64,000 bases of DNA, taken from the NCBI GenBank assembly GCA_902702965.1, contig CACRXP010000012.1:2017780-2081779 (forward strand), in the 5' to 3' direction. Positions 4,931 to 53,164 of the stretch are shown here, in pieces; positions within the stretch are counted from its first letter, which is position 1, and the number at the start of each line of letters is the position of its first letter. Under the pieces are notes generated by a model. That model had not been told where the DNA came from. It saw only the letters and a list, made by a program, of their open reading frames with translations, and searched no databases. The DNA is from Spirometra erinaceieuropaei. Lineage: Eukaryota > Platyhelminthes > Cestoda > Diphyllobothriidea > Diphyllobothriidae. A program made the translations under genes and the position numbers.

Positions 4931-5139
4931 GTTCTGCCTAAATCTATATTACTGTAATGACCAGATGAAGAATAATCGAAAACGAACATTCGCCTATTTG
5001 AACTTTCTCAGCATGTAAATAAGCATCATCACAGAAGTTAAACCGATTTTCCCGTTTTTCCACAATACGTAACATCGTAATCACCACGCTATTATCGTAG
5101 CTCATCTTAGCACCACGCAGCTATCGAGATACCTTTGAA

Positions 5140-5905
5140 TTAATTAACAACCTCAAAGACCTTAACGTCAACGGCATGGTGGTGTTCTCGCTAGACGTCT
5201 CATCACTTTTTACAAACGTTCCGGTCACCGAGGCAGTTGATTACATCTGTGATTTTTTATCTGTCAGTCAGGTGGAAATAGTAATTTCGACGAAGACACT
5301 CAAGGAACTATTACTAAGATGCACATTAAATGTGCAGTTCCTGCTCGACATTCAACTCTATAGGCAAGTAGACGGCGTTGCTATAGGCTCACCCCTTGGA
5401 CCTCTCCTAGCCGATGTCTTATTTGGAAAATTTGAGGTATTCCAATTAATCTACCATATCGATAAGCTTAAACATTACGGCCGCTATGTTGATGATATCT
5501 TTGCCATTGCCACTGCAGAAGCCGACGTAGTTACTCTCTCAGATGCTGCACATCAGGCACATCCGTCGATCATATTCAAGCTGGAGATCGAAACGGTCGG
5601 TTCGCTCACTTTGTTAGATGTTCTTCTAAGCAGCAGACCTGACGGGAATGTCCGAAGAAGCGTATGTCGGAAGCAAACCTGGTCTGGACAATACACGAAC
5701 TTCACAGTTTCGTACCCCTTCAACAAAAACGAAATCTAGTCCGATGTTTGGCACAAAGAGCCAGAAAAATTTGCTCAACAGATAGCATCGAGGAGGAGCT
5801 CAGAAAAATCCAGAACTTCCTTCGCGAAGACGGGTATCCTGACAGGTTTATCGCAAAGAACATTGCCGAACGACCCGCAAAACCCACCACACTGACCGCC
5901 GAATA
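5140..5905 (+). pseudogene. Penelope-like reverse transcriptase (degenerate)
   Basis: The 5176-5739 frame has RT palm motifs: VVFSLDVSSLFTNVPVTEA (motif A region with the first catalytic Asp), VDGVAIGSPLGPLLADV (motif B) and HYGRYVDDIFAIA (YVDD catalytic motif C). After a frameshift near 5680, the 5664-5906 frame continues with the PLE thumb-like segment ending LREDGYPDRFIAKNI. The N-terminal part is missing. The RT copies element RNA at broken DNA ends in the PLE scheme. It is joined downstream to a GIY-YIG ORF, which defines the family. Confidence 0.9.
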
Positions 5906-14260: not shown

Positions 14261-14925
14261 CTACATGTTTATTCAAGCAAACGTCACCGATATAACATCC
14301 TGAACTTTGGCGCCTGCGACGCAGGCGAGCTAGTCCGAAAAGGCTGCGACTCTGACAGCTCCTCTGGGGACATAACTCTGGGATGACGTGCAGAGTGGGT
14401 TCACAAATAAGTTTCTGGCGCACGCCTTACGTTATGTGTTCAAACCTGTCTGTTCTGCCCTTGTAACCGGTGGAGCTCTGAATGCAGTCGACTATCGCTG
14501 CGGTACCCGGGTATTGAGTGACCGCAGTCAACCACAATCGCTGTTTTACATTGCGTGACCTGGCTGACAACTTGAGGAAATGTGATGACCCTACTCACTG
14601 CCGTCTTGTAAAACATTGAGTCTTTGTCTAGCACCTACTCGCACGTACACACCAGCAGCGGACGTACATTCGACATTCTGCGGTTCTGTATAAGGCTTTC
14701 TTCGGGCCTGCTCAATCCACGAAACTCTGTTTTGCGTTCGACCAATCACCTTCAAGGTTGAGGCTGAGACGTCTTCATTCCAGACACTTGGACGCCTGCT
14801 GGGCGTCAACGGACGCGCGTCCCTCGTCCGGTTATCGACTTGTTGTGAGTGGTTTTCAGCTCATTCATTACAGAATACAATACTCCCTCTGTTGACCTCA
14901 AACATCTCTTTCTACTGTGGACATA

Positions 14926-15553
14926 CAGTAGGTGGGTTAACTCATGAAATGTCAACTGAAATTCCGAAATGCGTTTTCGTTTCCAAAAGATTAATTAAGT
15001 AGAGTCGTAAAACTAGTCAGCCTGCAACATAATTCTATAGTATTTCAGTTACCTCAGAATGCCGGCTTTTGAATGAACTTCCTACGGCTGCATGCAAAAG
15101 CTACACTCTGTGAAAAATGACCGCTCATGTAGCATGAATTTTTCTCATTGATTTTCGATACCCCGAAAAGTTCAATTATATTTTATGCAAACCATGCATA
15201 AAAATATTCATTCTTTTGCTTGTTTAGTAGATAATTACGTCTTCTTTTAATTTTATACTCGAAGGAGGGACATTAGTCGGTTTTAAAGACGGTTCTAATT
15301 GTGGGAATTTAAATATCGTAAAATGGCCGTTCACAAATCGTCATGTCTCTACATTTATCGATGTGGCTTGTAAAGTTAACAATATGGATCAAATCCACTG
15401 CTAAATTTTATGAACCCTATATGGTCCACCTCTATTACCGAAGGGTGATGTTCGATTTTCCGCATGCGGAAAATATACGGCTTGTAGTTTTGAAACCCTG
15501 AATCCATGTGTGACTGTAGAGCGGGTTCAAAATTATTCGGGAATTGGGAACAT
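14926..15553 (+). mobile_element. Tc1-related long-TIR MITE, copy C (right part missing)
   Basis: Begins directly after TA (14924-14925) with CAGTAGGTGGGTTAACTCAT, followed by GAAATGTCAACTGAAATTCC. Continues through the left arm and centre (TATACGGCTTGTAGTTTTG) and stops near 15553, before the right arm. Confidence 0.85.
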
Positions 15554-17085: not shown

Positions 17086-17171
17086 AACATCGTCGTTGCC
17101 AATAGAAACGAATATACGAGTCCCAGGAAGTAATCTTGAAGAAGGAGGCACGATCCCTGGGACAAGAGCTT

Positions 17172-17216
17172 TATTAGCCTGACGTTTCGGATTCAAGCTC
17201 GAACCCATCATCACTG
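17172..17216 (-). ncRNA. Hammerhead-like motif, type A (left half of palindrome)
   Basis: The minus strand has TGATGA, T, GGGTTC/GAATCC (helix II, one GU pair), GAAACGTC, AGGC, then AATAAA. The first core base is G instead of C, which should impair cleavage. Confidence 0.65.
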
Positions 17217-17226
17217 TATCTGCTTT

Positions 17227-17270
17227 TGTCTCTGATGATGGGTTCGGGCAGGAATCCGAAAGGTCATGCT
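17227..17270 (+). ncRNA. Hammerhead-like motif, type A (right half)
   Basis: CTGATGA at 17232-17238, then T, GGGTTC/GAATCC, GAAAGGTC. The core is intact but helix III reads AGGU, no longer self-complementary. Confidence 0.65.
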
Positions 17271-17547
17271 AACAAATCTCTTGTCCCAGTTATCGTGTCT
17301 TCTTTTTCAAAACATCGTCGTTCTCGACAATCCAACTGACGCAAACCTATGTGGACAGTTCTTGCCAAATTTTGCGGTCATGGAAGCTCTCAGACATGAG
17401 ATGTTTATTGCCCGGGTCATTAAATGTGAACGATTTCTGACTCCTTTTCGCATTATGCAGAAAAGGGCATCACTTGATTTCTCTGCCATGTTTTATCTGA
17501 TCCAGTGTAAATGTCATGGCAGGTTATGAACATAAATTCTCAGTCCC

Positions 17548-19142: not shown

Positions 19143-19574
19143 GTATGGCTACAACATAAGATCTTGCCAACTCCGATCTGGGAAAGCGGCATCTGTAGTG
19201 ACCCTACAGGGGGCTCCTTATGCAACACTGCACTTTTCGTCCGCAGCAATGGCAGTCTGGTTCTCGGTCAATCACAGCTACCCAAGCCAGCCAATCAACT
19301 TCAAGACCGACTCAAACATGTCCTATCTCAAGGCGCTCCGACACCTGTCCCATTGGCGCTCGGAGGTCTGCGTTCTTCGACGCTGGGAGTTTGTCCTCAT
19401 CTGGCTGTCAACCTACTCCCTAGAGCTTTCCGTCCCGTACAGAATGTAGCCCAATCTCTACTGGCGCCCAACTTCTCACTCTTCTATTCGGAACCTGTCC
19501 CGTAGAAGAGAAAAGGCGAGTCCCAGGAAGCAGTCGTGAAGAAACAGACACGATCGCTAGGACAAAAGCCTCAT

Positions 19575-19620
19575 TGGGCTGACGTTTCGGATTCCCGCTC
19601 GGACCCACCATCAGAGATCT
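19575..19620 (-). ncRNA. Hammerhead-like motif, type A
   Basis: The minus strand has CTGATGG (last core base changed), GGGTCC/GAATCC-like helix II, GAAACGTC, AGC. Helix III palindrome ACGT intact. Confidence 0.6.
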
Positions 19621-19631
19621 GTATCTGTTTT

Positions 19632-19675
19632 TGTCTTTGATGATGGGCTCGAGCAGGAATCCGAAACGTCAGCCT
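19632..19675 (+). ncRNA. Hammerhead-like motif, type A
   Basis: TTGATGA (first core base C to T), GGGCTC / GGAATCC, GAAACGTC at 19663-19670, AGCC. Confidence 0.6.
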
Positions 19676-20479
19676 GATCAAGCTCTTGACCCAGCGATCG
19701 TGTCTTCCTTTTCACTGTCCTGTAGATCGCAGCAGTTAGGGTCTGCCTGTGACTTTAGCCGCCGCGACAGGAGTTCTTTGTATGGCCCCAAAGTGCACGG
19801 AGACAATCAAGTCCCGATTATTGTCCATACTACGATAAAGTTCACAACGTTAATCCGGAAACACCTCCTGGTTACAACGAAAGGCCAAAAGCCATTGGCA
19901 GCTGACGTTTCACGGGATTGAATATTTTACAAGGCCAGCCTTTCTGACAGGCCGTATTTTTAGTTGTCAACACGAAAGGAAATTCTGAACAGTGTCACGG
20001 GGTTGAACGGTGGACTCACTTCCTCGTCCATTTCTCCGCTAGTATGGCACACGAATTAACTGGGAGTGTCTCGACTCCACAAGTACCTTCTGCTAAACGA
20101 GAACTCGCTGTCTTTTTCGTAACTGGCATCAGCATTCTCGTCGTCTTACCATTCAGACCGCAGTACTGTTCCCAATGTTTGGCGTTCCTTTTCTCGCGCG
20201 TTTCGTTAATAATGCAAAGCAACGGTTCTTACTTCTCTGCCAAAAATGACAGTTATGTCATGTAACGCCTGGGTGAGAGTGAACAGGCTTTCCGTAGGGA
20301 TTTACTCTTGGTTAAAATCCCCGGAGAGTCTTTTGTTGCCATTGCCAACCCCAAGAGGCACACACCGATCCATCAAATGACGCCCTGTCGACGATGGAAG
20401 GTTACATTAATAGCCCATCCCCCATTTTTGACGAAAGGCATTTTCTCTCTCTCTATCTCCAACCATATCCCAGGTAATC

Positions 20480-22490: not shown

Positions 22491-22859
22491 GATCACTGCT
22501 ACCTGAGATATAATAACTTCATGCCCTGTAAGCAATAAACACCTGATTCTGACCAGTGGTGTTCCAGATTCATCCACTTTTCGAGCCTCCGCTCTCAAAA
22601 CGAGGCTAGAATTCCTTGAAATTTGTGTCCACCCACGGAGAATCCAAGCAGAAGGCAATCATAATGAAGAATACCATATTGTAACTGAACGCATTTCCAT
22701 GAGACCGGATATCAGGATTTTCTTCCGTCAAAAGGATTCCTTTGGGAGTAGCGTCATGAAAATAGGGCATTTGACGTAGTCTGTCTTATCCCAAACAAAC
22801 GCACAAGTGAGCCCAAGTTAGCTTTGTCATGGGTATGATAAAGTTCCAGCCCGCTCCTA

Positions 22860-23845
22860 CAGCAGGTGGGATAACTCATGAAATGTCAACAGAAATTCCG
22901 AAATGCGTTTTCATCTCGAAAAGATTAATTACGTAGGCTTGTAGAACCAATCATCCCGCAGCACAATTCTATAATAATTCAGGTACCCCCGACGCCGGCT
23001 TTTGAATAAACTTCGCTCCGATTGCACCCTAAAACCATACTACGTAAAACATAACAATTTAATTAGCATGCATTTTTTAATGCTTTTGGATACCCTTAAA
23101 GATTCAAGTATCTTTCATGGAAAATATGCATAAAAATATTCATTGTATTGCTCATTCAGTAGAAAATCACGTCTTTTTTAACTTTGTACTCAAAGGAATG
23201 GTATAAATTGGTTTTAAAAAAGTTTCTATTTGTGAGACTGTTTAATACCTTGAAATAGCCCTTCATAAAATGTCATGACTCTGCATTTACGAATGTGGAT
23301 TGTAAAGTTAACAATGTGGCTCAAATCCACTGCTTCAGTTTATGAATCCCATATGATTTCTGATCGCCGTACAGAAATGTACGGTTTTCCGTACGCAGAA
23401 AATATACGGCTTGCAGTTTGGAAGCCTGAATACAAGTGTAGATGCAAGTTGGGTACAAAATTATTTGGGAAGTGGAAAAATCTTATAACACCGGATTGAA
23501 CCTTTCCTTCGAGTATACAATTGAAAGAAGACGTAATTTTCTACTGAATGAGCAATACAATGAATATTTTTATGCATGTTTTCCAAGAAAGATACTTGAA
23601 TCTTTAAGGGTATTGAAAATCAATAAAAAATGACTGCTAATTAAGTTGTCATTTTTTTACGCAGTGTGGTTTTTGGGTGCAGACGGAGCGAAGTTTTTTC
23701 GAAAGCCAGCATCCTGGAGTAACTGAATTATCATAGAATTATGCTGCAGGATGGTTGGTTTTACAAACCTACTTAATTAATCTTTTCGAGACGAAAACGC
23801 ATTTCGGAATTTCTGTTGACATTTCTTGAGTTAGCCCACTTACTG
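22860..23845 (+). mobile_element. Tc1-related long-TIR MITE, copy D (complete, 986 bp)
   Basis: Flanked by TA (22858-22859 and 23846-23847). The ends are CAGCAGGTGGGATAACTCAT on the left and its inverted partner ending CCCACTTACTG on the right. Arms of about 330 bp pair: for example TCTACTGAATGAGCAATACA on the right arm is the complement of the left TTGCTCATTCAGTAGA. No transposase. TA target and CAGT-type ends point to mobilisation by a Tc1/mariner transposase. Confidence 0.9.
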
Positions 23846-24490
23846 TACTTGCCAAAGGCCTCAACTGCAGGGCCACTAACTCAGACAAATCACGACTTCT
23901 AGTAGGAACTCAGTCGACCGTCAGACCACCCACCCTGGGCATCCAGGGCTGGCCATAGTTTGGCTGCATCTTCTCATATGTGCCGTTTGTTTTTTTTGTT
24001 GCCGCCATTGCCGGCGATGAGAGCCAATACGAGTTAGAGTTCGATCAAGTTAATACATGGCCTCACTGCCCGACCAGTCGTCGAGCAAACTAGCAGTTGG
24101 AACATAAGTGTTTAATTCTGTTCGTGAAGAATATGTTTCTTCTTATGATGATTAGCAATACCAAACATTTTCTCTCATCAAGCACCTACTAACAACAAGC
24201 ACTAGGCGCGCTGGCATTTTCTTCTAACGAATCTTTTTAACTTGCGGACGAGTTTAGAGTTAGTTAGCATTCTCCGCAAGATTGTTTGTGCTTTAAGGTC
24301 GATGGCCAACCAAGAGGATGTAGAGCTGTTCTTTTAACGGGGACAAATTCCTCAAATTCCATTTCCTCTCATCTTTATCCAAAACCATCATAATGATTGA
24401 AAATGAAGTCAGTTGTTCTCAATGCAAGAGAAAATGCGAGTTCAGGACGCAGTTTACAGGAAGACGCGGTCGAAGGAACAGCGATTTTCC

Positions 24491-24545
24491 TCGTCTGACA
24501 CGTCGAATTTACACTCGAATCCATCATCAGGGGGAGAGAGAGTGC
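24491..24545 (-). ncRNA. Hammerhead-like motif, type A (decayed)
   Basis: The minus strand has CTGATGA, T, GGATTC then a changed 3' helix strand and CGACGTGTCAG. Core intact, helix II and the GAAA block damaged. Confidence 0.5.
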
Positions 24546-24699
24546 ATCAGATAAGGGTAGTGGGCTGAAGAGGCGTTGCAGAAGAAGAAGGTTCTATGCG
24601 ACGGCATACCTATCGAGTCTGGGTGGCTCTCGTATGCATCGCAAACGCTGCCTGATGGCCCCTAGCCGAATCTTTGGCTGCCGCAAAATTTGACTGGTA

Positions 24700-25665
24700 C
24701 AGTGAATGACCGATCTCATGAAATGTTGACCGAAATTCTGAAATGCGTTTTTGATTTGGAAAGATTCCTTAGGTGGGCTTGTAATATTGATTAATATGCG
24801 GCATAATCCTGTAGTATTATGGACTCGCCAGGATGTTGGCTTTTGAATGCACTTCTTTTGCACCTACTCAGTAAAACTGACTACTTACGTAGAATGCATT
24901 TTTCGCATTGATTTTCGATGGTCTTATAAATTCGAATATATTTTATAGAAAACATGCACAAAATAAGCTTTCTTTTATTCTTTTGGTGGAAAATCGCGTT
25001 ATCTTCACATTTTATGCTCGAAGAAACGACGTCTTTCGGTTTTAAAAAAGTTTCTAATTATGAAATTTTTAAGATCGTGCGATGTCCATACGTACAGCAT
25101 CACACATGTATGTTTATCAATGCTCCTCACGAAATGTGCAACATAATACGCACCCACTGCAAAATTTTGTGAACTCTATATGGTATCTTCTTAAACGCAT
25201 ATAGGAATGTATGCCGTTCCTTACGCGCACCTTGTAGATTGAAAGCGCTAAACTCTAAGGCAACGGCTGGTCAGGCTCAAAATTATTCGGCAATTAGGAA
25301 ACTTTTTGAAAACCTAAATATACACTTTCTTTGGGTATAAAAGGAGAAAAAATGTAATTTGCTACCAAACGAGTAAAAGAAGGCTTATTTTTGTACATGC
25401 CTTCTATAAACTATATTCGAATTAATATGACCATCGAAAATCAATGCGAAAAATGCATTCTACTTAAGTAGTCATTTTACTGAGTTCGATTTCTACAGTA
25501 GGTGCAAAAGAAGTGCATTCAAAAGCCAACATCCTGACGAGTCCATAATACTACAGGATTATGCCGCATAGTAATCAATATTACAAGCCCACATAAGAAA
25601 TCTTTCCAAATCGAAAACGCATTTCAGAATTTCGGCCAACATTTCGTGAGATCGGTCACGCACTG
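24700..25665 (+). mobile_element. Tc1-related long-TIR MITE, copy E (complete, 966 bp)
   Basis: TA target at 24698-24699 and 25666-25667. The left end is CAGTGAATGACCGATCTCAT and the right end its inverted partner. Arms pair over about 330 bp (for example CATCCTGACGAGTCCATAAT against ATTATGGACTCGCCAGGATG). Its TIR resembles the Tc1 copy at 28174 (GATGACC.AACTCATGA). Confidence 0.9.
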
Positions 25666-25741
25666 TATGCACTAGCATGACGACTGCATCTTACAAATAC
25701 TGCAACACTTTGCAAACAGCAGACTTATCTGATATTGTCTC

Positions 25742-25786
25742 TCTCTCTGATGATGGATTCGAGTGTGAATCGGAAAGGTCAGGCGA
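25742..25786 (+). ncRNA. Hammerhead-like motif, type A
   Basis: CTGATGA at 25747-25753, T, GGATTC/GAATCG, GAAAGGTC, AGGC, then GAATAAAA. Confidence 0.6.
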
Positions 25787-25825
25787 ATAAAACTCCCGTC
25801 TTACCGATCACGTCTCCTTTCCAAT

Positions 25826-31434: not shown

Positions 31435-32110
31435 GATGGGCGTCGTCGGGCGTATGCACTGGTTGACGAAGTTGCGCGGGTATCCATTGGCTTTGAAGAC
31501 CCGTCGGAGGTATTGTAGTTCGGCAATCTTATCTTCCGGCTCACTGCAGTGCGTTTCGACACGCCGATAGAGCGTCCTTACACAACTGCGTTTGTGGCTG
31601 ATTGGATGGTTGCTTTTGAAGTTCAGTACTTGCATCGTATTTGTCACTTTCCTGAACACTTTGGCTTTTAGTCCACCCCAATATTTGCGGCATACGAGGG
31701 CATCCAGGAAGACCAGCTGGTTGTTCTCTTCCTCCATCGTAAATGTCCGGGAAAGACCTCATTCGGATGTTCCTTGAATGTCAGCAGCTGATCCCGGTCG
31801 ATAACGACGATGGTATCATCCACATACCGTACCCAGAATTTCGATCTGTGGTGTTGGAAGACCAGCGACTCTAACCGTTGCAAGACCGCCTCAGCGATGA
31901 ATCCCGAAATCGGCGAACCCATTGGTGTGCCCTTCACCTGTTCGTCGATTGTCCCGTCGAACGTGAAGTACGTCCCGAGACAGAACTTCAGGAGCTGAAG
32001 GACTTGGGCGTGTCCAAGACGATTCTCCGTTTCATCGTATTTGCTTTGCAGAAGCAGTTGGATTGTCTCGAGAAAACGACTGTGTGCTATAAATACTGCA
32101 GCCCCTTTTG
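31435..32110 (-). pseudogene. Penelope-like reverse transcriptase fragment
   Basis: The frame ending at 31668 gives GTYFTFDGTIDEQVKGTPMG, SPISGFIAEAVLQRLESLVF and FWVRYVDDTIVVIDRD: RT motif B (KGTPMGSPIS) and the catalytic YVDD. The next frame (31369-31737) continues with MEEENNQLVFLDALVCRK, VLNFKSNHPISHKRSCVR and RRVFKANGYPRNFVNQC, the PLE thumb-like end. There is one frameshift near 31735. The 5' part is missing; at 32110 it abuts an inverted 3'-end piece. Confidence 0.88.
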
Positions 32111-32114
32111 CATG

Positions 32115-32215
32115 AGCTACCCGTATCTGCTTTTGTCTCTTATGATGGGTTCGAGCAGGATTCCGAAACGTCAGGTTAGCAAAGCTCTTGTCCACGCGAT
32201 CGTGTCCCCTGCTTC
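32115..32215 (+). repeat. Inverted hammerhead-bearing 3' end joined to the PLE
   Basis: GTATCTGCTTTTGTCTCTTA, ATGATGGGTTCGAGCAGG, GAAACGTCAGG, AGCTCTTGTCCACGCGATCG: the same 3' end as in the palindromic elements, facing outward from the minus-strand RT. Confidence 0.75.
32136..32180 (+). ncRNA. Hammerhead-like motif, type A
   Basis: CTTATGA (one core change), T-like spacer, GGGTTC / GGATTCC, GAAACGTC at 32165-32172, AGG. Confidence 0.6.
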
Positions 32216-32219
32216 AAGA

Positions 32220-33339: not shown

Positions 33340-36300
33340 TTTATTTAGAAACCGCAGCCACCACTTCCATCGACGTTTAGTGCCCCTCTTTATGTACACA
33401 CCGTCATGAAGAAGGTTTTAAATTATGAATTCAAACAGACGTAGAAAAAAAGGAAGGAAGGAAGGTTATGTTATAAGAATCTGACGAAGGTTGTGGAAAA
33501 GGGGGGGGGGGGGGGGGGGACGATAGAGAGATGGATGTGGTTCTTGCTAGGCCTCGGAAGCGACCCCACCGAATGTGGGGCCTCGGAAGATGCGAATGTC
33601 CGAGTAGGGTCCGTCTTGGGACAGCTCGACGGCTCCCTGCTTACGCAACAACAGGACGGTGTAGAACTTTGAAGCAGCCTACAACAGCGCGAAAGATATA
33701 ATGGTTGATTAGTTTGACTTGAATGCTGTAGGTACCGACCGTTCTGTTACTTGAAAGTATACTTAAGTATTGGACTAAACGGGAAAAACGTGGTCAAAAC
33801 GCTAAATCTGGCGGGACCAAGTTATGATTATTTTAGTGATCGAAGATGTGGGGTGACTAAAGAAGGTGCCTTCAAACTAAAGTGACTAACTTGAAGCAAT
33901 ATTTCCCGGGATGAATCTGAAGTAAGCATAAACAGTAGAATTTATTGGAACCAATAAATTTCGCGACGGCTTATCAACTGCAGCCCTGTGGTTTACGTAA
34001 CCCCTCTGCGTGCTAACTTCTCCGTTTTCTCTTCTATGTTGCGTTTTCAAGTTAACATCTTATTTGTTAGTCTGCATAAAGTATACGATGACCTTGTTTT
34101 TTTATATTGATTTTCTCTGTGAAGTTCAAATCTCTGCACCTTTCTCATTTGTTATCTCTGTTATACAACGACAGGGCTGCAGTTGATAAGCCCTCGAGAA
34201 ATTTATTGGTTCCAATAAATTCTACTGTGTATGCTTGCTTTAAAGAACCTAAACAAATCAAGGAATTGCTTTCAAATAGGCATGAGGGGTATCTGAATTA
34301 GGGAGATATTTGACGATCCCAGGCACCGTTTCCCCATGAACCCTATATGGTCCCTCTTTATTACCGTTGAGAAATCTGTGGTTTTCCGTACGCGGAAAAT
34401 ATACGGCTTGTAGTTTGGAAACCCTGATTCCAAGTGTGACGGTAGAGCGACTTCAAAATTATTCGGGAATTGGAAGGCTTTTTAAAAACCGAATTATGTT
34501 CCTCATTCAAGCATAAAATCAGAAGAACATGTAATTATCTACCGAATGAGCAAAAGAATGAATATTTTTATGTATGTTTTCCATGAAATACAATTGGACT
34601 ATTAGAGGCATCGAAAATCAATGAGAAAAATTCCCGCTACTTAAGTAGTCATTTTTACAGTGTAGTTTTTTACAAGCAGCCGGCAGGAAGTTCATTCGAA
34701 AGCCGACACCCTTAGGTAACTGAAATATTATAGAATTATGCTGCAGGCTGAATAGTTTTAGAACCCTACCTAATTAATCTTTTCGAAACGAAAACGCACT
34801 TCGGAATTCCGGTTGATATTTCATGAGTTAACCCACCTACCGTACCTACATCAGATTGCCTAAATCGTATAATATTGTGATTTAAATTTGAGTGGATAGT
34901 ATGGTGTAGATTAGGTCTTGTTATTTTTGCTTGCAGAATTGATTTGAGGTGCAGAAAGCTATACATTAAAGAAATCATTAAAAATTTGTTTCATGAAAAG
35001 AAAAGAGGTCTGATTTGGACGAAATTCGACGTTTCTTGATATCCAAGTAATTTTCTCACAGGGAAAACCTCTTGCTTTTGAGCGTTTTGCTATAAATGAA
35101 CATTACGAAAGCAAGAGAAGCATCATATGAATTCCTTCTGGAACCGGAAAATCGAATTTTGCATCCATCGACATCTGGTGAAGGCAGGTATCAGAAATCA
35201 TAGTTTTCAATAAAAAAAAGTGGGAGGGGAATGAATTCAACTTTAAAAGTCTGTATTTGCGAATTTGTGGCAGTAGTTTCGGTTGCCATGCCGAGAACTG
35301 CCAGGAGTAAACAAGTATACATTGAGTGCCCTCAACGTGTTGCCGCTTTCCAGTGCCACGCCGGACAAAAAAACATGTCCGAGCAGTTTCTACCTGCAGG
35401 TGTGACTACGAACGGATACAGAAATTAATTGTATTGTATTTTAGGGTAATAGACAATGCCCTTGATGACCCTATTGAAAACGGAACATAAAATATAAATG
35501 TTAAATGTACATCTTACTACAATTTTGTCAGTAACATATTTGTTCACGGAAAACTTTCACAATGCGGGACTGCAAAGGGTGCGGCAGGCGGTCTTTTCAG
35601 TGTACACATGAAATTTTAAGTGCAGTTATATACAATCAGCATAAAGTGCAGTCATTTGCATAGTTTGAGAGGGGGCATCTCAGTAAGAGTCAGGGGGTGT
35701 TAAGTAGGGATGAAATCAAGAAATGAAATTTATGGCTGGCCGCGGGAGGGTTGTCGCTTGGGTCGTTGGCAAGTATTTGCGCCATTAGGATGGTCACTTT
35801 GTGTCAGACTATCAGCAATGATAGAAGCGTCCCTAAACATAAGCAGGGCGGACCAAAACGGTCCACAAGTAAGCAAGACAGGATTTTATTCGTTATGCAC
35901 TGGGAAAGTACCATTATATGCCTGCTGAGACCATTTACATGACGCATCTGCCGATGCCCTCTATGAAGAAAATTAGAAAAGGGATGCAGGAATTTTAAAT
36001 TCAGTAGCGAATGGCAATGATCACACCGTTTTCGAGTAGGAAACTGAACAGAGAACTTGTTTACTACTTAAGGATTATACTGATTGCAGAACCTCATTCT
36101 GTGAAGGCATTTACTTCTGTGATAAGGTCTTATTTTTGGTTAAGTCACGGAAATCGACCAGAATGACAATGTTCCTGACCATCGCTTTAAAGAAGTGTGG
36201 ATTTGATTATGCTTGCAGTTATAGTCTAACATTTTAGACAACAGTCAGCGTCCCCGCATGCTGCCGCTACTTAATTTCTATTCCTGCCAACAGACCGGAT

Positions 36301-39300
36301 CTTAATCCTAGCAAAATCGGTTTTGCACTTATCACAAAAAAGTGGCACAAGGCAAAAAAGAATCTCTCGATGTGAAAAAAGCCTGATTTCGTGTTCAATA
36401 ATCACAGTTAACAAACCACTGTTGACAACCTAGTTGTATCCAGGTCTGACAGACTTTATGCTGTTTGAACGGCAAACGGACAGTCAACATTGTGCTTTCT
36501 TGTATTTGTTATTATTTTTCACTATTCGCCCTTTTATGCACTCCCTTCCATATGCATCCTGATCTAAGTGATTTGCGATAAGGCGGTTTTTTGGAATTCC
36601 AGTTTTTGGTGAAAATTAATTACTTTAATGGCAGTAAATGTTAATTTGTAAACCTTTCCGCAGCGTGGGAGGATTTTGCCTTACTGGGATTCTCATGTGA
36701 GTCTTGACGTTTCCCGAGTTACCACACCTACTGTACGTTTGCAAAACACCGGTACAAAACAAATCCTCGTTGCAAAAACCTCCACTTTGCACACCAGAAA
36801 AAAACAAGTACTTTGTATCCTTCCCTAGTGAGATTATCAACGGGGGTCAATCAAACCGTCAGCATCAAGAACTAAAACTGATCAAGTCCACCCCTGCCTC
36901 CAAAAGCTTCCTTTGATATTTTCAGTCCAGTCCCCTGAAGATGCGATCACTACTGCGTTCACGGCAGCCTGTCCTACAGGGTACACAGGAAGGTTATGTC
37001 CGTCACACTATCTAATGGCCTAATCTGTGTGTTCCAATGGGCTATGCAGGATTCACACTGACTCCTGGCGTGTGTCGGTCAGGCCAGATGGGGATTTCCG
37101 CGGTTCAAACCCTCTTCGAAAGATTCAAGCTACTATACAGAAACATAAGTAACAGCCGCATATAACCGTTACAACATGGGTGGGGGCGATTGACCGGTAT
37201 CTGTATCGTAAGTAGGGTAGTTTACTTTGAAGTCAAATTCATAGACTACTGGGCTTCGTCGGCAGATTGTGGGATACTCCGCTAAAAGATGAATAGTTCG
37301 GCCGAAGTATTCATATCATCTTTCGATGAAAACCCTAAAAAGGCTTGTCTCGAGTAAAGAAGAGTCGAGCACCGGAACACTTTGTTTATTGTCCTGAGCC
37401 TTCAGACTCGTACAGGAGTCCATCGTCAGAGGTAGCAGCAGCAGCAGCAGCAGAACAAGCGACAGTTATAAGGCATGTAGGCCAATCATCAACCGACGGC
37501 GAAAGACTGGAGGTGACTACGTAGGGCTCTGTACGCCGACGCCAGATCGATAAATCAATTGACCTAGTTCCCATCCGAAGCCCAGGCTTCAATCAATTCT
37601 CGGCCTGTTTTGTTTCCGGCGTGGGCGTCTCGAGAACTCTCCACTCCACTCCCTGGCTGAAGTGGCCAAGTATTAAATAATCGCGGCATTCATGTAATAC
37701 CACTCACGTGGGAAACCCCGAAGTAGCCCTGATGAGCCAACCACGCGCCGATACTCCATGCTGCTGAACAAAAAGCAGCCAGCCCCTAATTCCAGTTTTT
37801 GGTCGGCACATGTTGGGGGGCTGCCGTCTCTGTGTAAAAGCACAACTAGTACTCAGTGTAATTGCATGAGGGTCGAGCAAATCCCCTTAAAAGGGACGCG
37901 AAATGGGATAATGGAATTCAGAGCATGGTGGGGAGGGGGAGAGCGTTAACCAATCACACACTACGAAAGAGGCTCGTCTTGTTGTGCCCCGGGGCTCAGT
38001 CTCGGCGTCGGTATTCCTTCGCATGGCATGTGTGTGTCAGATGTTTGGCGAAGGTTTACGTCACGTCAACCATTACGATCAATCTCACAACTAGTCGATC
38101 AACAGGCTCGGATAAGTCAGTAGTGAATGGGAGGGGGAGGTCGATGCGAAATGCTGCAGAATGCGAGCTAACTCAATTCTTCTCTGGGATGCGGGTCTAA
38201 ATGCAACGACCCCTTCTTCTTACTGTGATCTGCTTGGCACCCATCGCGTACGTGGGATCAGAAACGTGTTAGTGTGAAAGGCGTCGGAGGGAGGGTTCAC
38301 GTCACTTCAGGCACGGCGCGTGATCTCATTCCCAGTCGACTTGACTTTGGCAGGTCATCGGCACCGATGAAGCGTTTGAGCACCTCAATATAAACACCCA
38401 AACTCACTCCTTAACTACCAATATGCGGCAATGGTTGTGGCCCACTCCAAATGGCTCAAGCGATGACCTATGGAATGCAACCCCAGATGCAGGCAGTCGT
38501 TGACTTATCTAGATGGCATTACGAGAGTCAGTGTCGAGGAAAAGGTACTCTTTATGATTAATGACTTTTGGCCTTAAAATACACTGTCCGCTATTTTTTG
38601 CCGCAGAGGATTGCTGTACTTCTGAGTGGAACGGGCTAGACAACCACAACTAGCCATGGTTGCTCCGAGATAAGCGAACTACGAATCTGATATCTCATTA
38701 GAGCAAATTTCTTCTGGTCTCTCAAAGAGTGTAGAAGAAGATTCGGTTTCTCTGAACCGGCACGAGATGCAGATATTCTAGTGGAAAATTAATTGCCTGA
38801 TAAAACCGTCTTCCTGTCCATGGAGAAGAACGTTCAGGAAAGACAGCCTGTTGTTACGTTGGCTTTCCATTGCCAATTTAATCTCGGGATGCAGGCTGTT
38901 CATAGCAAAAACTTGGGCCCGGTCTTTCTCTTCCGCTGTCATCGACATATGTACACTAGACGTGCCATCCCATGAAATGTTGACCGAAATTCTGAACTTT
39001 GTTTTCGATTCAAACAGATTATTTAAGTAGGGTCAGTTAACTGGCCAAATGTCAGTGCCTTGGATAAAAGATGAATTTGCGCTGCAGCAGGAGTCTTTGG
39101 GTGATCTTCAGTTTTTTTGAGCCTCGAAACATATCAGGTGGTCGGTACAACGATGATGGTCGGTTGCAACTCTTAGGAATTGGAGTAGAGTCAATACAGG
39201 CTAAGGTGTTATGGAGAGCTCCGGACTGGGGGGCCTAAACGCGAAAAAGGAGACACAATGGTTGGAACGAAAGCTTTATTACCCTGATTCTCACTCGAAT

Positions 39301-42300
39301 CCATCATCAGAGACAGAGTCAGAAAAGGATAGTGGATTTTCCAGGTGTTGCAGTATTTATGGACTGTAGTCACTAGGCCGCTACATGCCTACCACAGTTT
39401 GCAGCTTCCGAATGCATAACGGCTCGACTGGCCAGGTGTTGAAGTATGCAGTTGCCATGCAGTTGCTACGCCCCTGTGTGCCGGGCAATATTATCGGTTC
39501 CCACGCTCATCGCACGCAGTCGAGTTGCTGATCGCCGGATTACGCCATCCGTGTGAGCTCTTGGGCGATTTGGCTCGCCGACATTGACACCAGTGACAGT
39601 GACCATCCGCACTCTTCCCTCGCGGCTAACTAATCTGCCTAGAAAAAGTCTCAGCGCCGAATATGGAGGAGGTCGTTTCGCTTATTGATTGTTTGAGGAC
39701 CGGAAATCCATGACGCGAGTGGTTCGCGTCTCACGCAGTTGTCGCCTCTAGCAAGAATTTCTGCTTCGTCAAACTTAAATGCGTGGTTGGGTCCCGTCGA
39801 ATGAGCCGCAACTTGAGAACTGGCGTTATTTCTCCGCACCGCTGCAGCATGTTCGGCCATTCGCGTTCGGAGCTGTCTTCCGGTTTCTCCGACGTAGTTG
39901 CCTTGTCCGCAGTCACGTACTGAAGTTTGACGAGGCAAAAAGTCTTGCCAAAGACGACAACGGCCTGAGCCGCGAACTACTCGAGTCGTGCATTTTCGGC
40001 ACTTAATCGATAAACATGCGCAACTACCTCCCAGCTCCATTTTCGGCGCTGAGATCTTGCTTGGGCAAAGAAGTTAGCCACGAGGAGAGCATGCGAATAG
40101 CCGCTGCCCAGGAGTCCACAAGGATGATGAAATCCGGAAGTCAGCAACTCGACTGCGTGAGATGAGCGTGGAAGCCGATAATCTTGACCGGCACAGCGGG
40201 ACATAGCAACTGCATGGCAACCGCATACCTCAACACCTGGCCAGCCGAGCCGGGGTGGACTCCGAAGCTGCCAACTGTGATATGAATGTAGCGGCCTAGC
40301 GTCTACAGTCTATAAACACTGCAAAATCTGGCAATCCAGTACCCCTATCTGACTCTGTCTCTGGTCTTGGATTCAAGTGAAAATCCGAAATGTCAGGCTA
40401 ATAAAGCTTGTGTCCCAGCGATCGTGTCTCGTTCTTCGCGACTACTTCCTGGAAATCGCCCTTCCGCTTCTATTAGAAAACATGCGCAAAGATATAAGCT
40501 CCTGCACTTATTTTGTAGCCAATTGCGTCCTATCCAGATTTCTTACTTGAAGAGAGAGAGAGAGAGCATCTTTTGCTTTTAAAAAAGTTCTAAGTTATGG
40601 GCTTTTTAAAATCGTGAAATGCCCAATTATGAAGGCGAAATTTCGAGTTCCAGGTGTATACATATTTGAAGAAGAAGAAGAGTCGAGCACCGGAACAATT
40701 CGTTTATTATCCTGAGCTTTCAGACTCGTACAGGAGTCCATCGTCAGAGGTAGTGGCAGAAACAGGACAAGCGGCAGTTATAAGGCACGTAGACCCAATC
40801 ATCGACCGACGTCGCACGACTGGAGGTGACTACGAAGGACTCTGTACGCCGGCGCCAGATCGATAAATCGATTGACCGAGTCCTCATCCGAGGCCCAGGC
40901 TTCAATCAATTCTCGGCCTGTTTTGTTTCCGGCGTTTTCAGAGGCGACCGAGCGCATTGCTGCGGAGCTAGGGGTTGGAATCGCACACCGCCCCAAAGCC
41001 ACCATGCGCAACAGGGTCATGAAGATCAAAGACCGGTTAAAACCTGAAGAGCAATCTGGAGTAGTGTATCGCATTCCGTGTCAAAATTGTCCTTGTAATT
41101 ACACAGGACAGACTGGACGCATGCTCGGATCGCGCATACACGAGCATAAGCTGGCTGTGCGACGAGGCGACGCATTATCACAAGTGGCCGCCCACACCTA
41201 CGAAATGGGTCACGAGTTTGACTTCGCAGCCAACAAAATAGTTGCCCACGCCGGAAACAAAACAGGCCGAGAATTGATTGAAGCCTGGGCCTCGGATGAG
41301 GACTCGGTCAATCGATTTATCGATCTGGCGCCGGCGTACAGAGTCCTTCGTAGTCACCTCCAGTCGTGCGACGTCGGTCGATGATTGGGTCTACGTGCCT
41401 TCTAACTGCCGCTTGTCCTGTTTCTGCCACTACCTCTGACGATGGACTCCTGTACGAGTCTGAAAGCTCAGGATAATAAACGAATTGTTCCGGTGCTCGA
41501 CTCTTCTTCTTCTTCAAATGCCCAATTATCTAACAGCGTATCAGCATGTTTATTACCGCTACTTTTAGATTACACAACCTGGTCCACAATTTTATGAGTC
41601 CTATATGACGTCTTTCTATCAGCATGGAGAAAAGTATGACAGTTCTCTGACTGAATATGCATACAGTATATGTAATTTGGAAACCCCGAGTATACGTGTA
41701 ACGGCACGTGGGGCAAAAAAGTATTCGGGAATTCAAATAGAATACGTAATTTGCTACCAAAGGAGCACCACTGAGAGCAGTTTTGTGCATGTTTTCCATA
41801 TAACATGTTTAAATTTACAAAAGCTTCGAAAACCAACGGGAAAAATCATGCTACGGACAGCCAAAAATAGGCGTGACTGAAATATCTTAGCGTTTTGTCG
41901 TAGGATAATAAACATTACAACCCCGCCCACGCAACCTTTTTTTAGAATGGAAAACGTATTTCAGAATTTCGCCTAGCATTTTGGGGAGTCATCGTGTTCA
42001 ATATTGACGCGACAAGCTTTCTTCTCGGTGGGGGGGGGGGATGCCTGTAATTGATAAGCCGCTGCGAAATTACTTGGCACCAACGAACTCTCCTGTTCAT
42101 GCCAAACTGTTTCAAATTTATCAAGGAGGTAAAACCGTCCTGCGAACGGGTGGTGTGGCCGCAAAGCAGACGGAGAGCCGAATCTGTAATGCTGGTGAGG
42201 GCGGGGGAGGGGTAGAAATTCCAACACGACCGCCTACCTGCTTCTTTGTGTTGTTCTCACACATGGCGAGAAGGGAAAGACCGTCCGGAGACCAACCGTG

Positions 42301-45300: not shown

Positions 45301-48300
45301 CAACTCAGCAATACTCTCAAGGGCACCTATGAGAGGATATCAGATCCCCTTAGATACAAACGTTTGTTATTATTGTCTAGGTTTTGAAATTGTGAACGAA
45401 AGTCAGACTGCATCTGGGCTTGGCCTAACGTCCAAATAAACAGTACCACCCGCCCGCGTAAGGCCTCAGTTAAGCAAAACTTTTTCGCAAAATGATTTTT
45501 CCTCAGGTCAGGGATTTCTGGGCACCAATCTGCGAATGTCTCTGATGATGGATTCGAGTGAGAATCCGAAACGTCAGGCCAATAAATTTCTTCTTCCAGT
45601 GATCGCATCTTTGTCTTCTAAACTGCTACCTGGAACTCGCCTGTTCGCTTCTATCAGCAGTCTTTTTGGGCGCGAAGCGCTCCGATCGGCTCGACGGTGG
45701 GAAACCTTTGCTCTTCGAGAGTCGTCTACATATGTGCTGCCTTTATCTGCGAATGTCTCTGATGACGGATTCGAGTGAGAATCCGAAGTCAGGCCAGTAA
45801 ATTTCTTGTTCCACTGATCGCTGTCACTGTCTGCAGCCCGAAAACTCTAAAACTCACCGCTGGGGCCTCAGAGAGAACACTTGGCGGTGGGAGGTAAGGC
45901 GTGTCGATGAGAGGGAAGTCGGCTCCGCCGTCGTCTAGGTCATCACTCTGAACACTGGCGGGCTCAGGAATGTCGGTGGGCCTGGTGGCAGCTCGGTCGA
46001 CTGTGGCCAGGAAGGGATCGTGGATATTTTCATTGGTCTGGTCAATGTGGTCGGCTAAAAAAAGAAGGCGGTGCATGCGGAGGAGTTAGTCAGCTGGCAT
46101 TTTGACAGACCAGCGGCAGTGTTAGCGAAACTTAGGCATCAACAGCGACACTCGTGCTGCCAACAACGCAGAAAATACAATTCAGCTGAGGTTCACAACC
46201 CCGTATTTTCCTTGTGTCTAGGTAATTACCTGCACGGTAGCGCTGGGATAGGACGCTTTAAGTTATGGCGGATAGCAGTCGCTACATACCGACAACTTTT
46301 CTTCAGCGACCACTTGTGTAAATAATTAAAACCGTCTATTCTGGAAGTTTTTGCCCGATTACTGCGCCGAGATGCGTTCTGCTATCTTACACCTGAAGAC
46401 GCAGCCGATAAATATCTTCTTTTCAGTAGTTTTGGATTAACAGAAGAAATGGATAACGTGTCAGCGAGCCCATGAGCGCAGTTTCCATTGAATAAAAACA
46501 GGGGCGACCCGCAAATTGATTTTAAATATTACGACCAACGCAGATTGCAGGGCCTCATGGACTTCAGAAAAATATGGACTTTTGAGGAAGAAAGGGAAGT
46601 TAGATGAACCGACGAAATCAAGGCAAGGTAAGAAGATGCACGCGCAACACGAGAAAAAAACATCCATACTGAAGCATTTCAGCCCGATTTCTTCGAACGA
46701 CAGTTCGACCGTCGATTTCGACGACATCCACTGTGTGCTACACACAAAGGTGCATTAGACCCGGTGACTTGCACGTAAATTAGTCTGTAGTGACTGTGGA
46801 CTTGCGTAGCATCTACCGCTCTCTCTGCACCTCATTTATCTGGATCCGGTGTCAAGACAGGGTCAAGAAGACCGGAGGCCAGGTTTTTTTAATCCACAAC
46901 AACGGGGACGGCAGGAGTCCTAGTGTGCGCTACGTCTGCCGGCAACCGGGTCTGCCACCACAACCCGAAATGTTGGCATTTGTTATGGTGCGCCAATCCG
47001 ATAACGCCTGCCAGATTCCAATATGGCCCCCGTGTTGTTCAAGCGCATCTACCACGTGGACCGTTTGGGCGGCATGTAAGGAACCAATAGGGGGTTCCTA
47101 ACAGAGCCGAGTTCGAACCTCATAAGGTCGCGCGGACTACGCTGTCCTGGTCCATCACAGTGATTCATAACTGTTCTCCTCCACCCGTAGTTCAGGAGAC
47201 TACTCCGTGTTTCAGTTCCTGTGGAACGAGTCTCAAATCGTCTGTGCCCAAGAATTCCATCTTACAGTCTCAGAACAACTGCCTTCGCTGGAATAGGGTC
47301 GTCTTGAGAGTAAAACGGGAAACCGATGGTTCCGCACATTGCTGTGACGTTTTCAAGGCTAGGATCCATCTGTTCGCAGAAGTATTTTGTCACCCCGGAT
47401 CCCCGTTTCTCATAATCTACTCTAAGTGGGATTTTAACTATCAGGACTACAAACCTTGTGAGCCGTGTCGATAAACTGAAAATGTACACCGAATGGCTAC
47501 TAGTGTAATTTAAGTAGCCTTAAAATTCGGGTGGTCAAGGTCTTCTTGGAAGGGAGGTTTGGATAATCGTTTGTGGCGTACTTGCCGTAATTCAACATTT
47601 AAAACCAGGCCACCAATCGAGAGGGATGTCTGATTCTAATACAAGCCAGTCGCGTTACACCTATCCACAGGCCCGCGGCCCATCAAGTCATATAGGAGTG
47701 ACGCTTGCTAAAAGGCACCTACTGGCCCCTGACTTCCGAGTTTGTCTTAACAAAGGCCGTACACCACGGAGCAATTCATAATGGGATGAGCCACAAATAA
47801 GGAAATGAAAAATGATGTGTCCATTTAGGCCCCAGCCTAGCAGTCGCATACATTACCCGCGCAGTTGACTGGCAAGTTTGAGAACTTCTCGCTTGAAAAT
47901 TGTAAGTTCACTTCCACACCACTGATTTCAAAAAGATGAGTTGCCACAAATTATTCTGATGCATGCAGATAATCACGTTATATTTTCTCCCGATCTTGCG
48001 TGAATAATGTTTACTGAGTTAGGCATGGGAGTCGAGTCGAAACATGCGGTTGGCTATGTAATATGTTGGAATACTGGCAAAGTAGATCTCATTCACGCTG
48101 GACTATTAAGGTAGGAGGTAAAATGATAATCAGGGGAAAGTAAGGAATAGCCCAGTAACTTTACCATGTTGTTCACCGATATGTGCACCCGCCATGGCGA
48201 ACGGCCTGTCATGCACCAATTTGTTAGGATCGCCTTGCTGGACTGAGAAAGTACGGTGATCTGAAGGATGACTTGAAATCGTTTCTTCAGTCCCCTCTGG

Positions 48301-51321: not shown

Positions 51322-51329
51322 CTGCAAAA

Positions 51330-52218
51330 AAATCGCAAATTTGTTTTCTAATAAGGCGCTGAATAATCCAAAAGACTAAAACAAACGCCCGTTCCAGTAA
51401 ATGTAGCCAAAATAGTAATTAGTCATTTTGCCAGTTATATGCACAAAGGATATGCTCATCAGCATTTTACCGCTTTTGCGCTAAAATGTAAAAGGTCATA
51501 GGTCCAGCTGAGGCGCCAGAGTGCTCAGCAGAAATTTAAAAATTAAATTGCTTGACGTACGGCAGTTAGCAGATGAACATCCGACGGCGGCCAGAAGCGA
51601 CGCACTAACGGTGCATAGACTGGAGCTGCAGGAAGCTCCGAAGACTTTGGCAATTCAAGGGCAGAAAAGCAGAAGAAGCTTATATCTATAGTGGATTGGA
51701 ACTCTCAATGCGCAGACCAAGTGACGTAAAATGGAATTAACTGGCAGACAAGTCTGATAAGATGCGAGTAACCGAAAAAAAACTATGTAAAACGCGTGAC
51801 AAGAACAAAGAAACAAGGTTTCGTTAATATGTAGTCGAGATCCACACTAATGCTTATAACAAACAATAAGTTCGTGTACGCTGCTATGATGGCGGCGATC
51901 AAACTTGGCTGTCGACATATTGAGTTGCCGTTTCCTGATTGCATGATAGCCTGGGTCTCGCAGAAATTTACGATGACTCCTTAATATAGGTGCCTGAAAA
52001 ATGAGGCGCAGAGGTCCTGTCGGAGCAAACCATGTGCTCAGATAAAGAATGACTACGTGCACAGTAAGGTTGCTATGAAAGACTGCACTTGATAAACGGA
52101 TGACCGGGGAATTGTGTTGAACAGGTGATAAAAATTGACAACTTTGGTTAGCACTGGTCAAGGGTATGACATTTATATATGATATGACATTTCGACGTGT
52201 ATGCACACCAGTTCCAAT
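51330..52218. other. Upstream region of RAD21; no promoter motif recognised
   Basis: Contains the acceptor just before exon 1. Any first non-coding exon or TATA box was not identifiable. Confidence 0.35.
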
Positions 52219-52394
52219 GGGTTTTTGAATCTATTGCTGGTATCGATTGGGGGAAGGCAATAACAGGGTAGTGATCATGACGATGGAAGATACTTTCAAG
52301 TGCGGTGGGTTTTTGAATCTATTGCTGGTATCGATGGGGGGAAGGCAATAACAGGGTAGTGGTCATGACGATGGAAGATATTTTCAAGTGCGGT
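52219..52394 (+). repeat. Tandem 88-bp duplication at the LINE 5' end
   Basis: Units 52219-52306 and 52307-52394 (GGGTTTTTGAATCTATTGCT .. TTTCAAGTGCGGT) differ at only a few bases. Repeated 5' monomers act as promoters in some LINEs. Confidence 0.9.
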
Positions 52395-53145
52395 GGACGA
52401 GTTTCGGTAAATCAAGAAAATTATCAGTCGGTTCATCATATCATTTCATGCGTTGCTCATTACCAACCCGACTTGATATGTTTGACAGAAGCATGGTTAA
52501 ATGCGCAGATAAAAGATGCGGAAGTTATGCTAGATGGTTTCCAGATTCTCCGAATGGACCGAAACGAACGAAGGGGTGGGGGGATTGCGGTATTTATTCG
52601 AGATGGCATCGACTACGTCAGAGTTGAGCCTTCCCCATTTAGGCACATTGATTGTGAAATACTCAGTTGGTACTTGAAAGTGCCAAACCATCCAAGCCTC
52701 CATATGGCCATGGTTTACAGACCGCCAAGCCAGCGGACGGATGCGGCCGATGCACTCATCACCGAGATAAAAGACATTTGACGAAGCAAACACATAATGC
52801 TACTTAATGACTTGTCCAGACATCAAGTGGGATTTGATGCATTGCACGCGAGCAGAAAACTCCTTCGAAAAGAAATTAAATTCAACTGATCACAAATGAG
52901 TTCCTCACCCAACATGTTAAAGTGGACACTCGATTCAGAGATTGACAGCAGTCCAGTTGTTTGGACCTCATCATCACTAGGGATGATAGTTGCATTCTCG
53001 GATTGGAATCGCACACGCCCCTTGGCCGAAGTGACCACTGCGTTCTTGTTTGGGAGTATAGTCATTTTTCTGTACCCGAAATTCGAGCTGCTGAGGAAAG
53101 AAATGTATGGAAAGGGGATTATCCCCGAATGAAAAATCTGCTATA
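52359..53145 (+). pseudogene. LINE AP-like endonuclease domain
   Basis: DLICLTEAWLNAQIKDAEVM is the catalytic Glu (TE) region. RRGGGIAVFIRDG and HMAMVYRPPS follow in the 52359-52781 frame. LLNDLSRH replaces the usual GDFN. After frameshifts, TRDDSCILG.. and GRSDHCVLVWEYSHF give the SDH catalytic motif in the 52961-53146 frame. Confidence 0.87.
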
Positions 53146-53164
53146 GTAGGTGAACTGTAATGCA

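What the first reader, a model, noticed from the sequence alone, without database searches (positions are those of the whole stretch)
17086..17322. A 213-bp palindromic hammerhead element with a perfect 12-bp target duplication
AACATCGTCGTT flanks two head-to-head hammerhead units (17098-17310) inserted in an R1 repeat. The unit has no ORF and no room for one, so it moved as a non-autonomous palindrome. A symmetric element of two inverted ribozyme units is unlike described retrozymes, which are direct repeats, and unlike usual MITEs.
Basis: seen in the sequence. Interest (0 to 1): 0.85.

Follow-up and report, generated by a model that had tools for sequence, protein, structure and literature searches.

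The report
Palindromic stub of a Penelope retrotransposon
In what is likely a tapeworm genome, a 213-letter insert flanked by a perfect 12-letter repeat consists of two mirror-image, non-coding end pieces that match the ends of Penelope-type jumping genes in the same stretch; it was probably made when the element's enzyme copied its RNA onto both cut strands of the target, so it is likely a very small form of a known kind of insertion rather than a new class.

Summary
A perfect 12-bp direct repeat (17086-17097, 17311-17322) flanks a 213-bp near-palindrome. It is not single-copy: a second copy with the same asymmetric plan lies at 19507-19714 (direct repeat 11 of 12).

The interpretation changes. 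The arms are hammerhead-bearing pseudo-LTRs (pLTRs) of Penelope-like elements (PLEs). Fourteen such units lie in the window. Larger head-to-head relatives at 40631-41515 (14-bp direct repeat, 99.6% identical arms) and 39232-40474 carry PLE endonuclease sequence; the first one's 68 listed relatives are all tapeworm proteins. Inverted pLTRs, short target duplications and a ~31-bp "tail" on one inverted pLTR are already described for PLEs (PMC3846280). By alignment, each of the 5 palindromes here has a tail on exactly one arm. This fits RNA copied from both cut target strands at two start sites (compare PMC11167929), though that step is inferred.

"Two hammerheads" is too strong: only the right core is intact, Rfam gives no hammerhead match, and neither pairing nor covariation exceeds shuffles.

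Open: whether the 213-bp form moves as its own non-autonomous family. The two copies have nearly the same junction, but the arms' phylogeny is unresolved and the whole-genome search did not complete.

The parts
17086..17097 (.). left copy of the 12-bp target duplication AACATCGTCGTT
17098..17213 (-). left arm of E17: PLE pLTR unit on the minus strand, with tail
17098..17135 (-). about 38-nt tail present only on the left arm
   Evidence: alignments; arm limits
17214..17310 (+). right arm of E17: PLE pLTR unit on the plus strand, no tail; its first base aligns 31-33 nt downstream of a TATA-like box in three longer units (predicted RNA start)
17228..17271 (+). approximate span of the hammerhead-like motif with intact core (CTGATGA ... 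GAAA ... TC)
   Evidence: no Rfam hammerhead match
17311..17322 (.). right copy of the 12-bp target duplication
19495..19506 (.). left copy of the target duplication of E19 (11 of 12 identical to the right copy)
19507..19714 (.). second pLTR-only palindrome E19, same plan (tailed left arm, tail-less right arm)
19715..19726 (.). right copy of the target duplication of E19
40617..40630 (.). left 14-bp target duplication AAATGCCCAATTAT of E40
40631..41515 (.). E40: PLE fragment with head-to-head inverted arms (272 bp, 99.6%) and endonuclease sequence
40938..41381 (+). PLE GIY-YIG endonuclease coding sequence inside E40 (residues 37-184 of P0125)
41516..41529 (.). right 14-bp target duplication of E40
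39232..40474 (.). E39: old head-to-head PLE palindrome (70.7% self-complementary over 39240-40440) with an endonuclease remnant; no target duplication beyond chance
24430..25823 (.). E24: PLE pLTR units facing outward (78.9% over 71 nt), interrupted by a MITE-like palindrome; no target duplication beyond chance
31671..32219 (.). PLE-like reverse transcriptase fragment (-) head-to-head with a pLTR unit (+, 32121-32219)

Best explanation
The 213-bp insert is two head-to-head copies of the non-coding terminal repeat (pLTR) of a Penelope-like retrotransposon, flanked by a perfect 12-bp duplication, and it was likely made when the element's enzyme cut both target strands and used each end to copy short pLTR RNA. 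Inferred steps: a GIY-YIG endonuclease would make a staggered double cut about 12-14 bp apart. The left 3' end would prime reverse transcription at the downstream start site, giving the arm with the tail. The right 3' end would prime at the upstream start site, giving the arm without it. The right-hand copy would run to the 5' end of the RNA, the left-hand copy would stop about 19 nt short, and the two ends would be joined in the middle. Filling the stagger would give the 12-bp duplication. The hammerhead would be a passenger signature of the pLTR in this copy. Shown directly: the palindrome, the duplications, the homology of the arms to the ends of endonuclease-bearing insertions in the same window, and, by alignment, the tail on one arm of each palindrome.
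For: Arms match pLTR units elsewhere in the window (BLAST; nhmmer finds 14 units at E <= 1.4e-18, 13 of them in the model's own seed). E40 has the same plan with a 14-bp duplication and 99.6% arms, and its body encodes a protein 94% identical over 148 residues to a tapeworm protein that continues from an RT-thumb-like region (my reading) into the GIY-YIG region. E39 carries a remnant 44% identical over 77 residues to the same endonuclease. RT fragment P0122 is 47% identical over 108 residues to tapeworm protein P0163, which joins RT to the same endonuclease. Each of 5 palindromes has exactly one tailed arm by alignment. Three of 5 have a target duplication beyond chance. Published PLE anatomy: inverted pLTR, duplications of 8-10 bp (one subfamily none), 31-bp tail on one of the inverted pLTRs, head-to-head most frequent (PMC3846280, passages). 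Published biochemistry: an Anolis PLE protein cuts and extends both strands and starts at two internal RNA sites that account for the tail; hammerhead mutants do not affect insertion in vitro (PMC11167929, parts 1 and 2 of 4).
Against: Both-strand copying is not shown here; self-priming on an antisense template was proposed for the same architecture. Two of 5 palindromes (E24, E39) have no target duplication beyond chance (47 and 145 of 300 random placements as good), so their ends rest on alignment alone. The E17 and E19 junctions nearly coincide, which independent joining need not give. In the Anolis study the start sites did not differ between strands, so the one-tail rule is not predicted by it. 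Pfam GIY-YIG is below its cut-off (15.9 against 22.6 bits), and the E39 remnant has no Pfam match.
Confidence: 0.7

Rival explanations
1. The 213-bp palindrome is itself a non-autonomous mobile family: a ready-made head-to-head pLTR pair is transcribed and moved in trans by PLE enzymes, keeping its junction.
For: Two copies with different target duplications and unrelated flanks, the same asymmetric borders and junctions that differ by about 5 nt. Trans-mobilisation by pLTR signals is reported for rotifer PLEs (passages).
Against: Arm phylogeny does not support it: of the informative sites in the four arms, 1 groups the arms by element, 1 by side, 0 crosswise. The right-arm start aligns 31-33 nt downstream of a TATA-like box in three longer units, so a fixed RNA 5' end could explain part of the coincidence. 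Only 2 copies seen.
Confidence: 0.22
2. The same PLE insertion type, but the inverted arm arose by self-priming of reverse transcription on an antisense transcript (fold-back), not by two-strand priming.
For: Proposed for rotifer PLEs from palindromes at inverted junctions (PMC3846280, passages).
Against: Fold-back copying should give arms with the same outer end, but each of the 5 palindromes has one tailed and one tail-less end by alignment, and tail-less ends fall at nearly the same position. Early termination at that site could still mimic this.
Confidence: 0.2
3. A DNA transposon derivative (MITE or foldback element).
For: Non-coding, palindromic, short, with a target duplication.
Against: Arm ends are not inverted copies of each other (38-nt tail on one side), duplications vary (12 bp, 12 bp with a mismatch, 14 bp), and the units are PLE ends. 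A MITE-like palindrome in this window looks different: TACAGT...ACTGTA-like ends.
Confidence: 0.03
4. A retrozyme-like element that spreads through hammerhead-generated RNA circles.
For: Hammerhead-like motif in each arm; E17 right core intact.
Against: Described retrozymes are tandem or LTR-type direct repeats (PMC7229834, part 1 of 6). The left core is broken at the junction, and both cores of E19 are broken. A circle would need two cuts in one orientation.
Confidence: 0.02
5. A host rearrangement (inverted duplication of a resident pLTR) rather than an insertion.
For: Other PLE fragments lie near.
Against: Perfect 12-bp duplication exactly at the borders, and a second copy with its own duplication. 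Four other copies of the left flanking repeat have no insert at that point, though similarity to the right of it is weak.
Confidence: 0.03

Closest known systems
EN-containing Penelope-like elements with inverted pLTRs (Adineta vaga Pen2a and Pen2; PMC3846280, passages)
   Same: Inverted pLTRs, 9-10-bp target duplication, about 31-bp tail on one of the inverted pLTRs, TATA-like box in the pLTR, inverted pLTR shorter than the direct ones (37 bp in Pen2a)
   Different: Here, in E17 and E19, no coding sequence is left between the arms, and the duplications are 12 bp
PAc (Poseidon) PLE of Anolis carolinensis (PMC11167929, parts 1 and 2 of 4)
   Same: Two internal start sites that correspond to tailed and tail-less ends; enzyme acts on both target strands; hammerhead at the pLTR-ORF start
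   Different: In vitro system with no pLTR-only palindrome described in the parts read; start sites did not differ between strands, whereas here each palindrome shows one of each
Metazoan retrozymes (PMC7229834, part 1 of 6)
   Same: Small, non-coding, type I hammerhead motifs
   Different: Tandem direct repeats spreading by RNA circles; here inverted, with degraded or minimal hammerheads
MITEs / foldback DNA transposons (recalled)
   Same: Non-coding palindrome with target duplication
   Different: Outer ends are not inverted copies, duplication varies, and the sequence is PLE-derived

Membership tests
Penelope-like element insertion (truncated to pLTRs) | Arms homologous to pLTRs of elements that encode PLE-type RT and GIY-YIG endonuclease | tested here: met
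   Pfam GIY-YIG itself below its cut-off
Penelope-like element insertion (truncated to pLTRs) | Short target duplication | tested here: met
   E17 12/12, E19 11/12, E40 14/14; E24 and E39 not beyond chance
Penelope-like element insertion (truncated to pLTRs) | 30-40-nt tail on one of the inverted pLTRs (optional in the family) | tested here: met
   5 of 5 palindromes by alignment, exactly one tailed arm; outer ends backed by duplications in 3 of 5
Autonomous Penelope-like element | Own RT and endonuclease coding sequence | tested here: not met
   213 bp without coding sequence; it can only be a truncated or non-autonomous derivative
Minimal type I hammerhead ribozyme | Intact core CUGANGA ... 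GAAA ... UH | tested here: inconclusive
   5 of 13 aligned units intact (R17, U45a, R25, R41, L40; the last two are the near-identical arms of E40); E17 left and both E19 arms broken; the 14th unit, L39, was left out because part of its core is deleted
Minimal type I hammerhead ribozyme | Helices I and II supported by pairing | tested here: inconclusive
   87.4% of cells paired against at most 55.0% when slid, but 159 of 500 shuffles pair as well and 128 of 500 reach the covariation score (13 of 14 units, 12 distinct rows)
Minimal type I hammerhead ribozyme | Match to an Rfam hammerhead model | tested here: not met
   no hammerhead hit; PLE hammerheads are described as lacking helix III or tertiary contacts, so the models may miss them
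Minimal type I hammerhead ribozyme | Self-cleavage | not testable with these tools
   needs an RNA assay
Retrozyme | Direct tandem repeats or LTRs with hammerheads in the same orientation | tested here: not met
   units inverted
MITE | Terminal inverted repeats at both outer ends and fixed duplication length | tested here: not met
   tail on one end only; 12- and 14-bp duplications

The most novel reading that the evidence does not exclude
Tapeworm Penelope elements have given rise to a miniature palindromic parasite of their own: a 213-bp, protein-free, head-to-head pLTR pair that is mobilised in trans as a unit and always carries one tailed and one tail-less end, because the PLE dimer uses one RNA start site on each target strand.
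Probability: 0.22. Interest if true: 0.65.

Novelty: new variant of a known kind. Interest (0 to 1): 0.4.

Why it matters
How Penelope-like elements make inverted copies is unsettled: self-priming on antisense RNA was proposed in 2013 (PMC3846280), and two-strand cutting and extension was shown in vitro in 2024 (PMC11167929). pLTR-only palindromes with clean duplications and a tail on one end only would record both start sites and both cuts in one 237-bp stretch. In genomes where PLEs make up about 10% (PMC8166898, passages), many such junctions may be countable, which would test the two models directly. If some of these stubs move as a family, they would be a new non-autonomous class.

Tried and rejected
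One exact-pattern scan of viral contigs gave 0 matches. Rfam: the only strong relaxed hit is a microRNA-precursor model at 49.5 bits against a cut-off of 245, which I read as a long hairpin matching any hairpin model; rejected. Arm phylogeny to separate independent insertions from a moving unit: unresolved, with low supports in this part of the tree; the topology test planned in the same script printed no result. PDB sequence search with the endonuclease: 0 matches. RAD21 homology (best 120 of 1141 listed) did not fix the host; the endonuclease did: all 68 matches bear names of Sparganum, Spirometra, Schistocephalus or Dibothriocephalus; NCBI places Schistocephalus and Spirometra in Diphyllobothriidae (the other two not looked up). 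Two weak nhmmer hits (20645, E 7e-5; 29825, E 5e-4) were not counted as units. Papers not held: PMC4209133, PMC5785218, PMC8557442; what I say of minimal PLE hammerheads comes from passages of reviews. Passages of PMC8490949 and PMC8969392 were seen; the second also mentions inverted pLTRs and short 3' extensions.

Full report
The observation. At 17086-17322 the window holds AACATCGTCGTT, 213 bp of near-palindrome, and AACATCGTCGTT again. The arms 17136-17213 and 17233-17310 are 85% complementary over 78 nt. The RNA folds 12.9 standard deviations below shuffles. No repeat as good was found in 300 random placements of end windows of the same size.

It is not alone. A BLAST of the insert against the window finds a second complete copy at 19503-19714 (80% over 212 bp) and many single-arm relatives. 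That copy (E19) has its own duplication, CTGTCCCGTAGA / CTGTCCTGTAGA, 11 of 12 (0 of 300 random placements as good). Its flanks do not resemble those of the first copy, E17. An nhmmer model of the unit finds 14 units at E <= 1.4e-18; 13 of these were in the seed, so only one (37356-37441) is new; two weak hits (E 7e-5 and 5e-4) were not counted.

What the unit is. In three longer units a TATA-like box (TATAAATA, TATAAACA, TACAAATA) precedes a hammerhead-like motif; several units have AATAAA shortly after the predicted cleavage site; and there are two kinds of 3' end: tail-less, mostly at a TTCTTCTTCA-like tract, or extended by about 31-38 nt. Two larger head-to-head insertions reveal the family. 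E40 (40631-41515, 14-bp duplication, 0 of 300 random placements as good) has 272-bp arms 99.6% identical. Its body encodes P0125, whose residues 37-184 are 94% identical to a Sparganum proliferum protein that runs from an RT-thumb-like region into the GIY-YIG region (the reading of the thumb is mine). Pfam GIY-YIG is hit only below its cut-off (15.9 against 22.6 bits); UniRef names some close Schistocephalus relatives GIY-YIG domain-containing. E39 (39232-40474) is self-complementary at 70.7% over 39240-40440 and carries a remnant 44% identical over 77 residues to the same endonuclease, without a Pfam match. A PLE-like RT fragment (P0122, TPMGSPISG...RYVDD) lies at 31671-32213, head-to-head with a pLTR unit. 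It is 47% identical over 108 residues to tapeworm protein P0163, which joins RT and this endonuclease in one chain. A second RT fragment at 5101-5736 is more distant (26%). PLEs cover about 10% of the S. proliferum and S. erinaceieuropaei assemblies (PMC8166898, passages).

The host. All 68 endonuclease matches bear names of Sparganum, Spirometra, Schistocephalus or Dibothriocephalus; Spirometra and Schistocephalus are Diphyllobothriidae. The window is therefore likely from a Sparganum/Spirometra tapeworm; the assembly was not seen.

The one-tail rule. In each of 5 palindromes (E17, E19, E24, E39, E40) one arm has the tail and the other does not, by alignment. In E17, E19 and E40 the left arm is tailed and the tail-less right arm reaches further to the RNA's 5' side (19 nt in E17, 16 nt in E19; in E40 the right arm holds the endonuclease). 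In E39 the right arm is tailed. E24 is interrupted by a MITE-like palindrome and its borders are less sure. Duplications beyond chance were found for E17, E19 and E40, not for E24 (47 of 300 random placements as good) or E39 (145 of 300). If arms were tailed at random half the time, one tail in each of 5 would have probability 1/32; this is a description, not a test. The remaining 4 of 14 units are a single unit at 37 kb, the unit beside the RT fragment at 32 kb, and a direct tandem at 45.5 kb.

Mechanism. For rotifer PLEs the typical insert has direct pLTRs plus an inverted pLTR, a duplication of 8-10 bp (one subfamily has none) and an optional 31-bp tail on one of the inverted pLTRs; head-to-head is the most frequent arrangement, and self-priming on antisense RNA was proposed (PMC3846280, passages). 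For the Anolis PLE, purified protein cuts and extends both strands and starts at two internal RNA sites whose spacing is the tail; start sites did not differ between strands, and hammerhead mutants did not affect insertion (PMC11167929, parts 1 and 2 of 4). E17 fits copying from both cut strands: a tail start on the left, a tail-less start on the right, and cDNAs meeting in the middle. The first base of the E17 right arm aligns 31-33 nt downstream of the TATA-like box in the three longer units, and the E19 right arm starts within about a base of it, so these arms may be run-offs at the RNA's 5' end. This is inference. Simple fold-back copying should give both arms the same outer end, which is not seen, but termination at the tail-less site could mimic the pattern.

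Does the palindrome move as a unit? For: two copies, separate duplications, junctions that differ by about 5 nt. Against or neutral: across the four arms, 1 informative site groups by element, 1 by side and 0 crosswise, and tree supports are low. I cannot decide.

The hammerhead. The core is intact in 5 of 13 aligned units (two of these are the near-identical arms of E40): E17's right arm has it, E17's left arm has G for the first core base at the junction, and both E19 arms are broken. The 14th unit, L39, was left out because part of its core is deleted. The proposed helices pair in 87.4% of cells against at most 55.0% when slid, but 159 of 500 shuffles pair as well and 128 of 500 reach the covariation score. 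Rfam finds no hammerhead. PLE hammerheads are described as minimal, lacking helix III or the tertiary loop contacts, and may cleave as dimers (passages of PMC7761336 and PMC6155905), so a missing Rfam hit is not decisive. Activity is untested.

Empty sites. Four other copies of the left flanking repeat (near 11.1, 18.7, 31.4 and 63.7 kb) have no insert at that point; the one near 11.1 kb has AACATCGTCG once. Similarity to the right of the point is weak, so this is only suggestive.

Novelty. The plan is known for PLEs. A pLTR-only palindromic form did not show up in the listings and passages I saw from my searches of the held library, which lacks several key papers.

Noticed in passing
22858-23847; 24698-25673; fragments 513-953, 14924-15553, 34336-34845: A separate palindromic family of about 990 bp (two fuller copies with arms about 85% alike) whose better-preserved ends read TACAGT...ACTGTA-like, looking like a mariner-type MITE (recalled); one copy sits between the two pLTR units of E24.
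   Followed up: partly
45528-45654 and 45741-45827: Two pLTR units in direct tandem (94% in the core), the other arrangement known for Penelope-like elements.
   Followed up: partly
37359-37636: A single-arm PLE insertion with GTCTCGAG on both sides by eye (8 bp, no chance control run), with no inverted partner seen.
   Followed up: no
50936-51418 (-): N-terminal exon of a RAD21 cohesin subunit (Pfam E 3e-42), the one clear host gene piece among the ORFs scanned.
   Followed up: partly
52317-54804 (+): Endonuclease/phosphatase-like and RT fragments that look like a LINE.
   Followed up: no
P0180 (Spirometra protein, not in the window): A predicted protein joining a LINE-type RT (my reading) to the PLE endonuclease end, possibly a gene model across nested insertions.
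   Followed up: no
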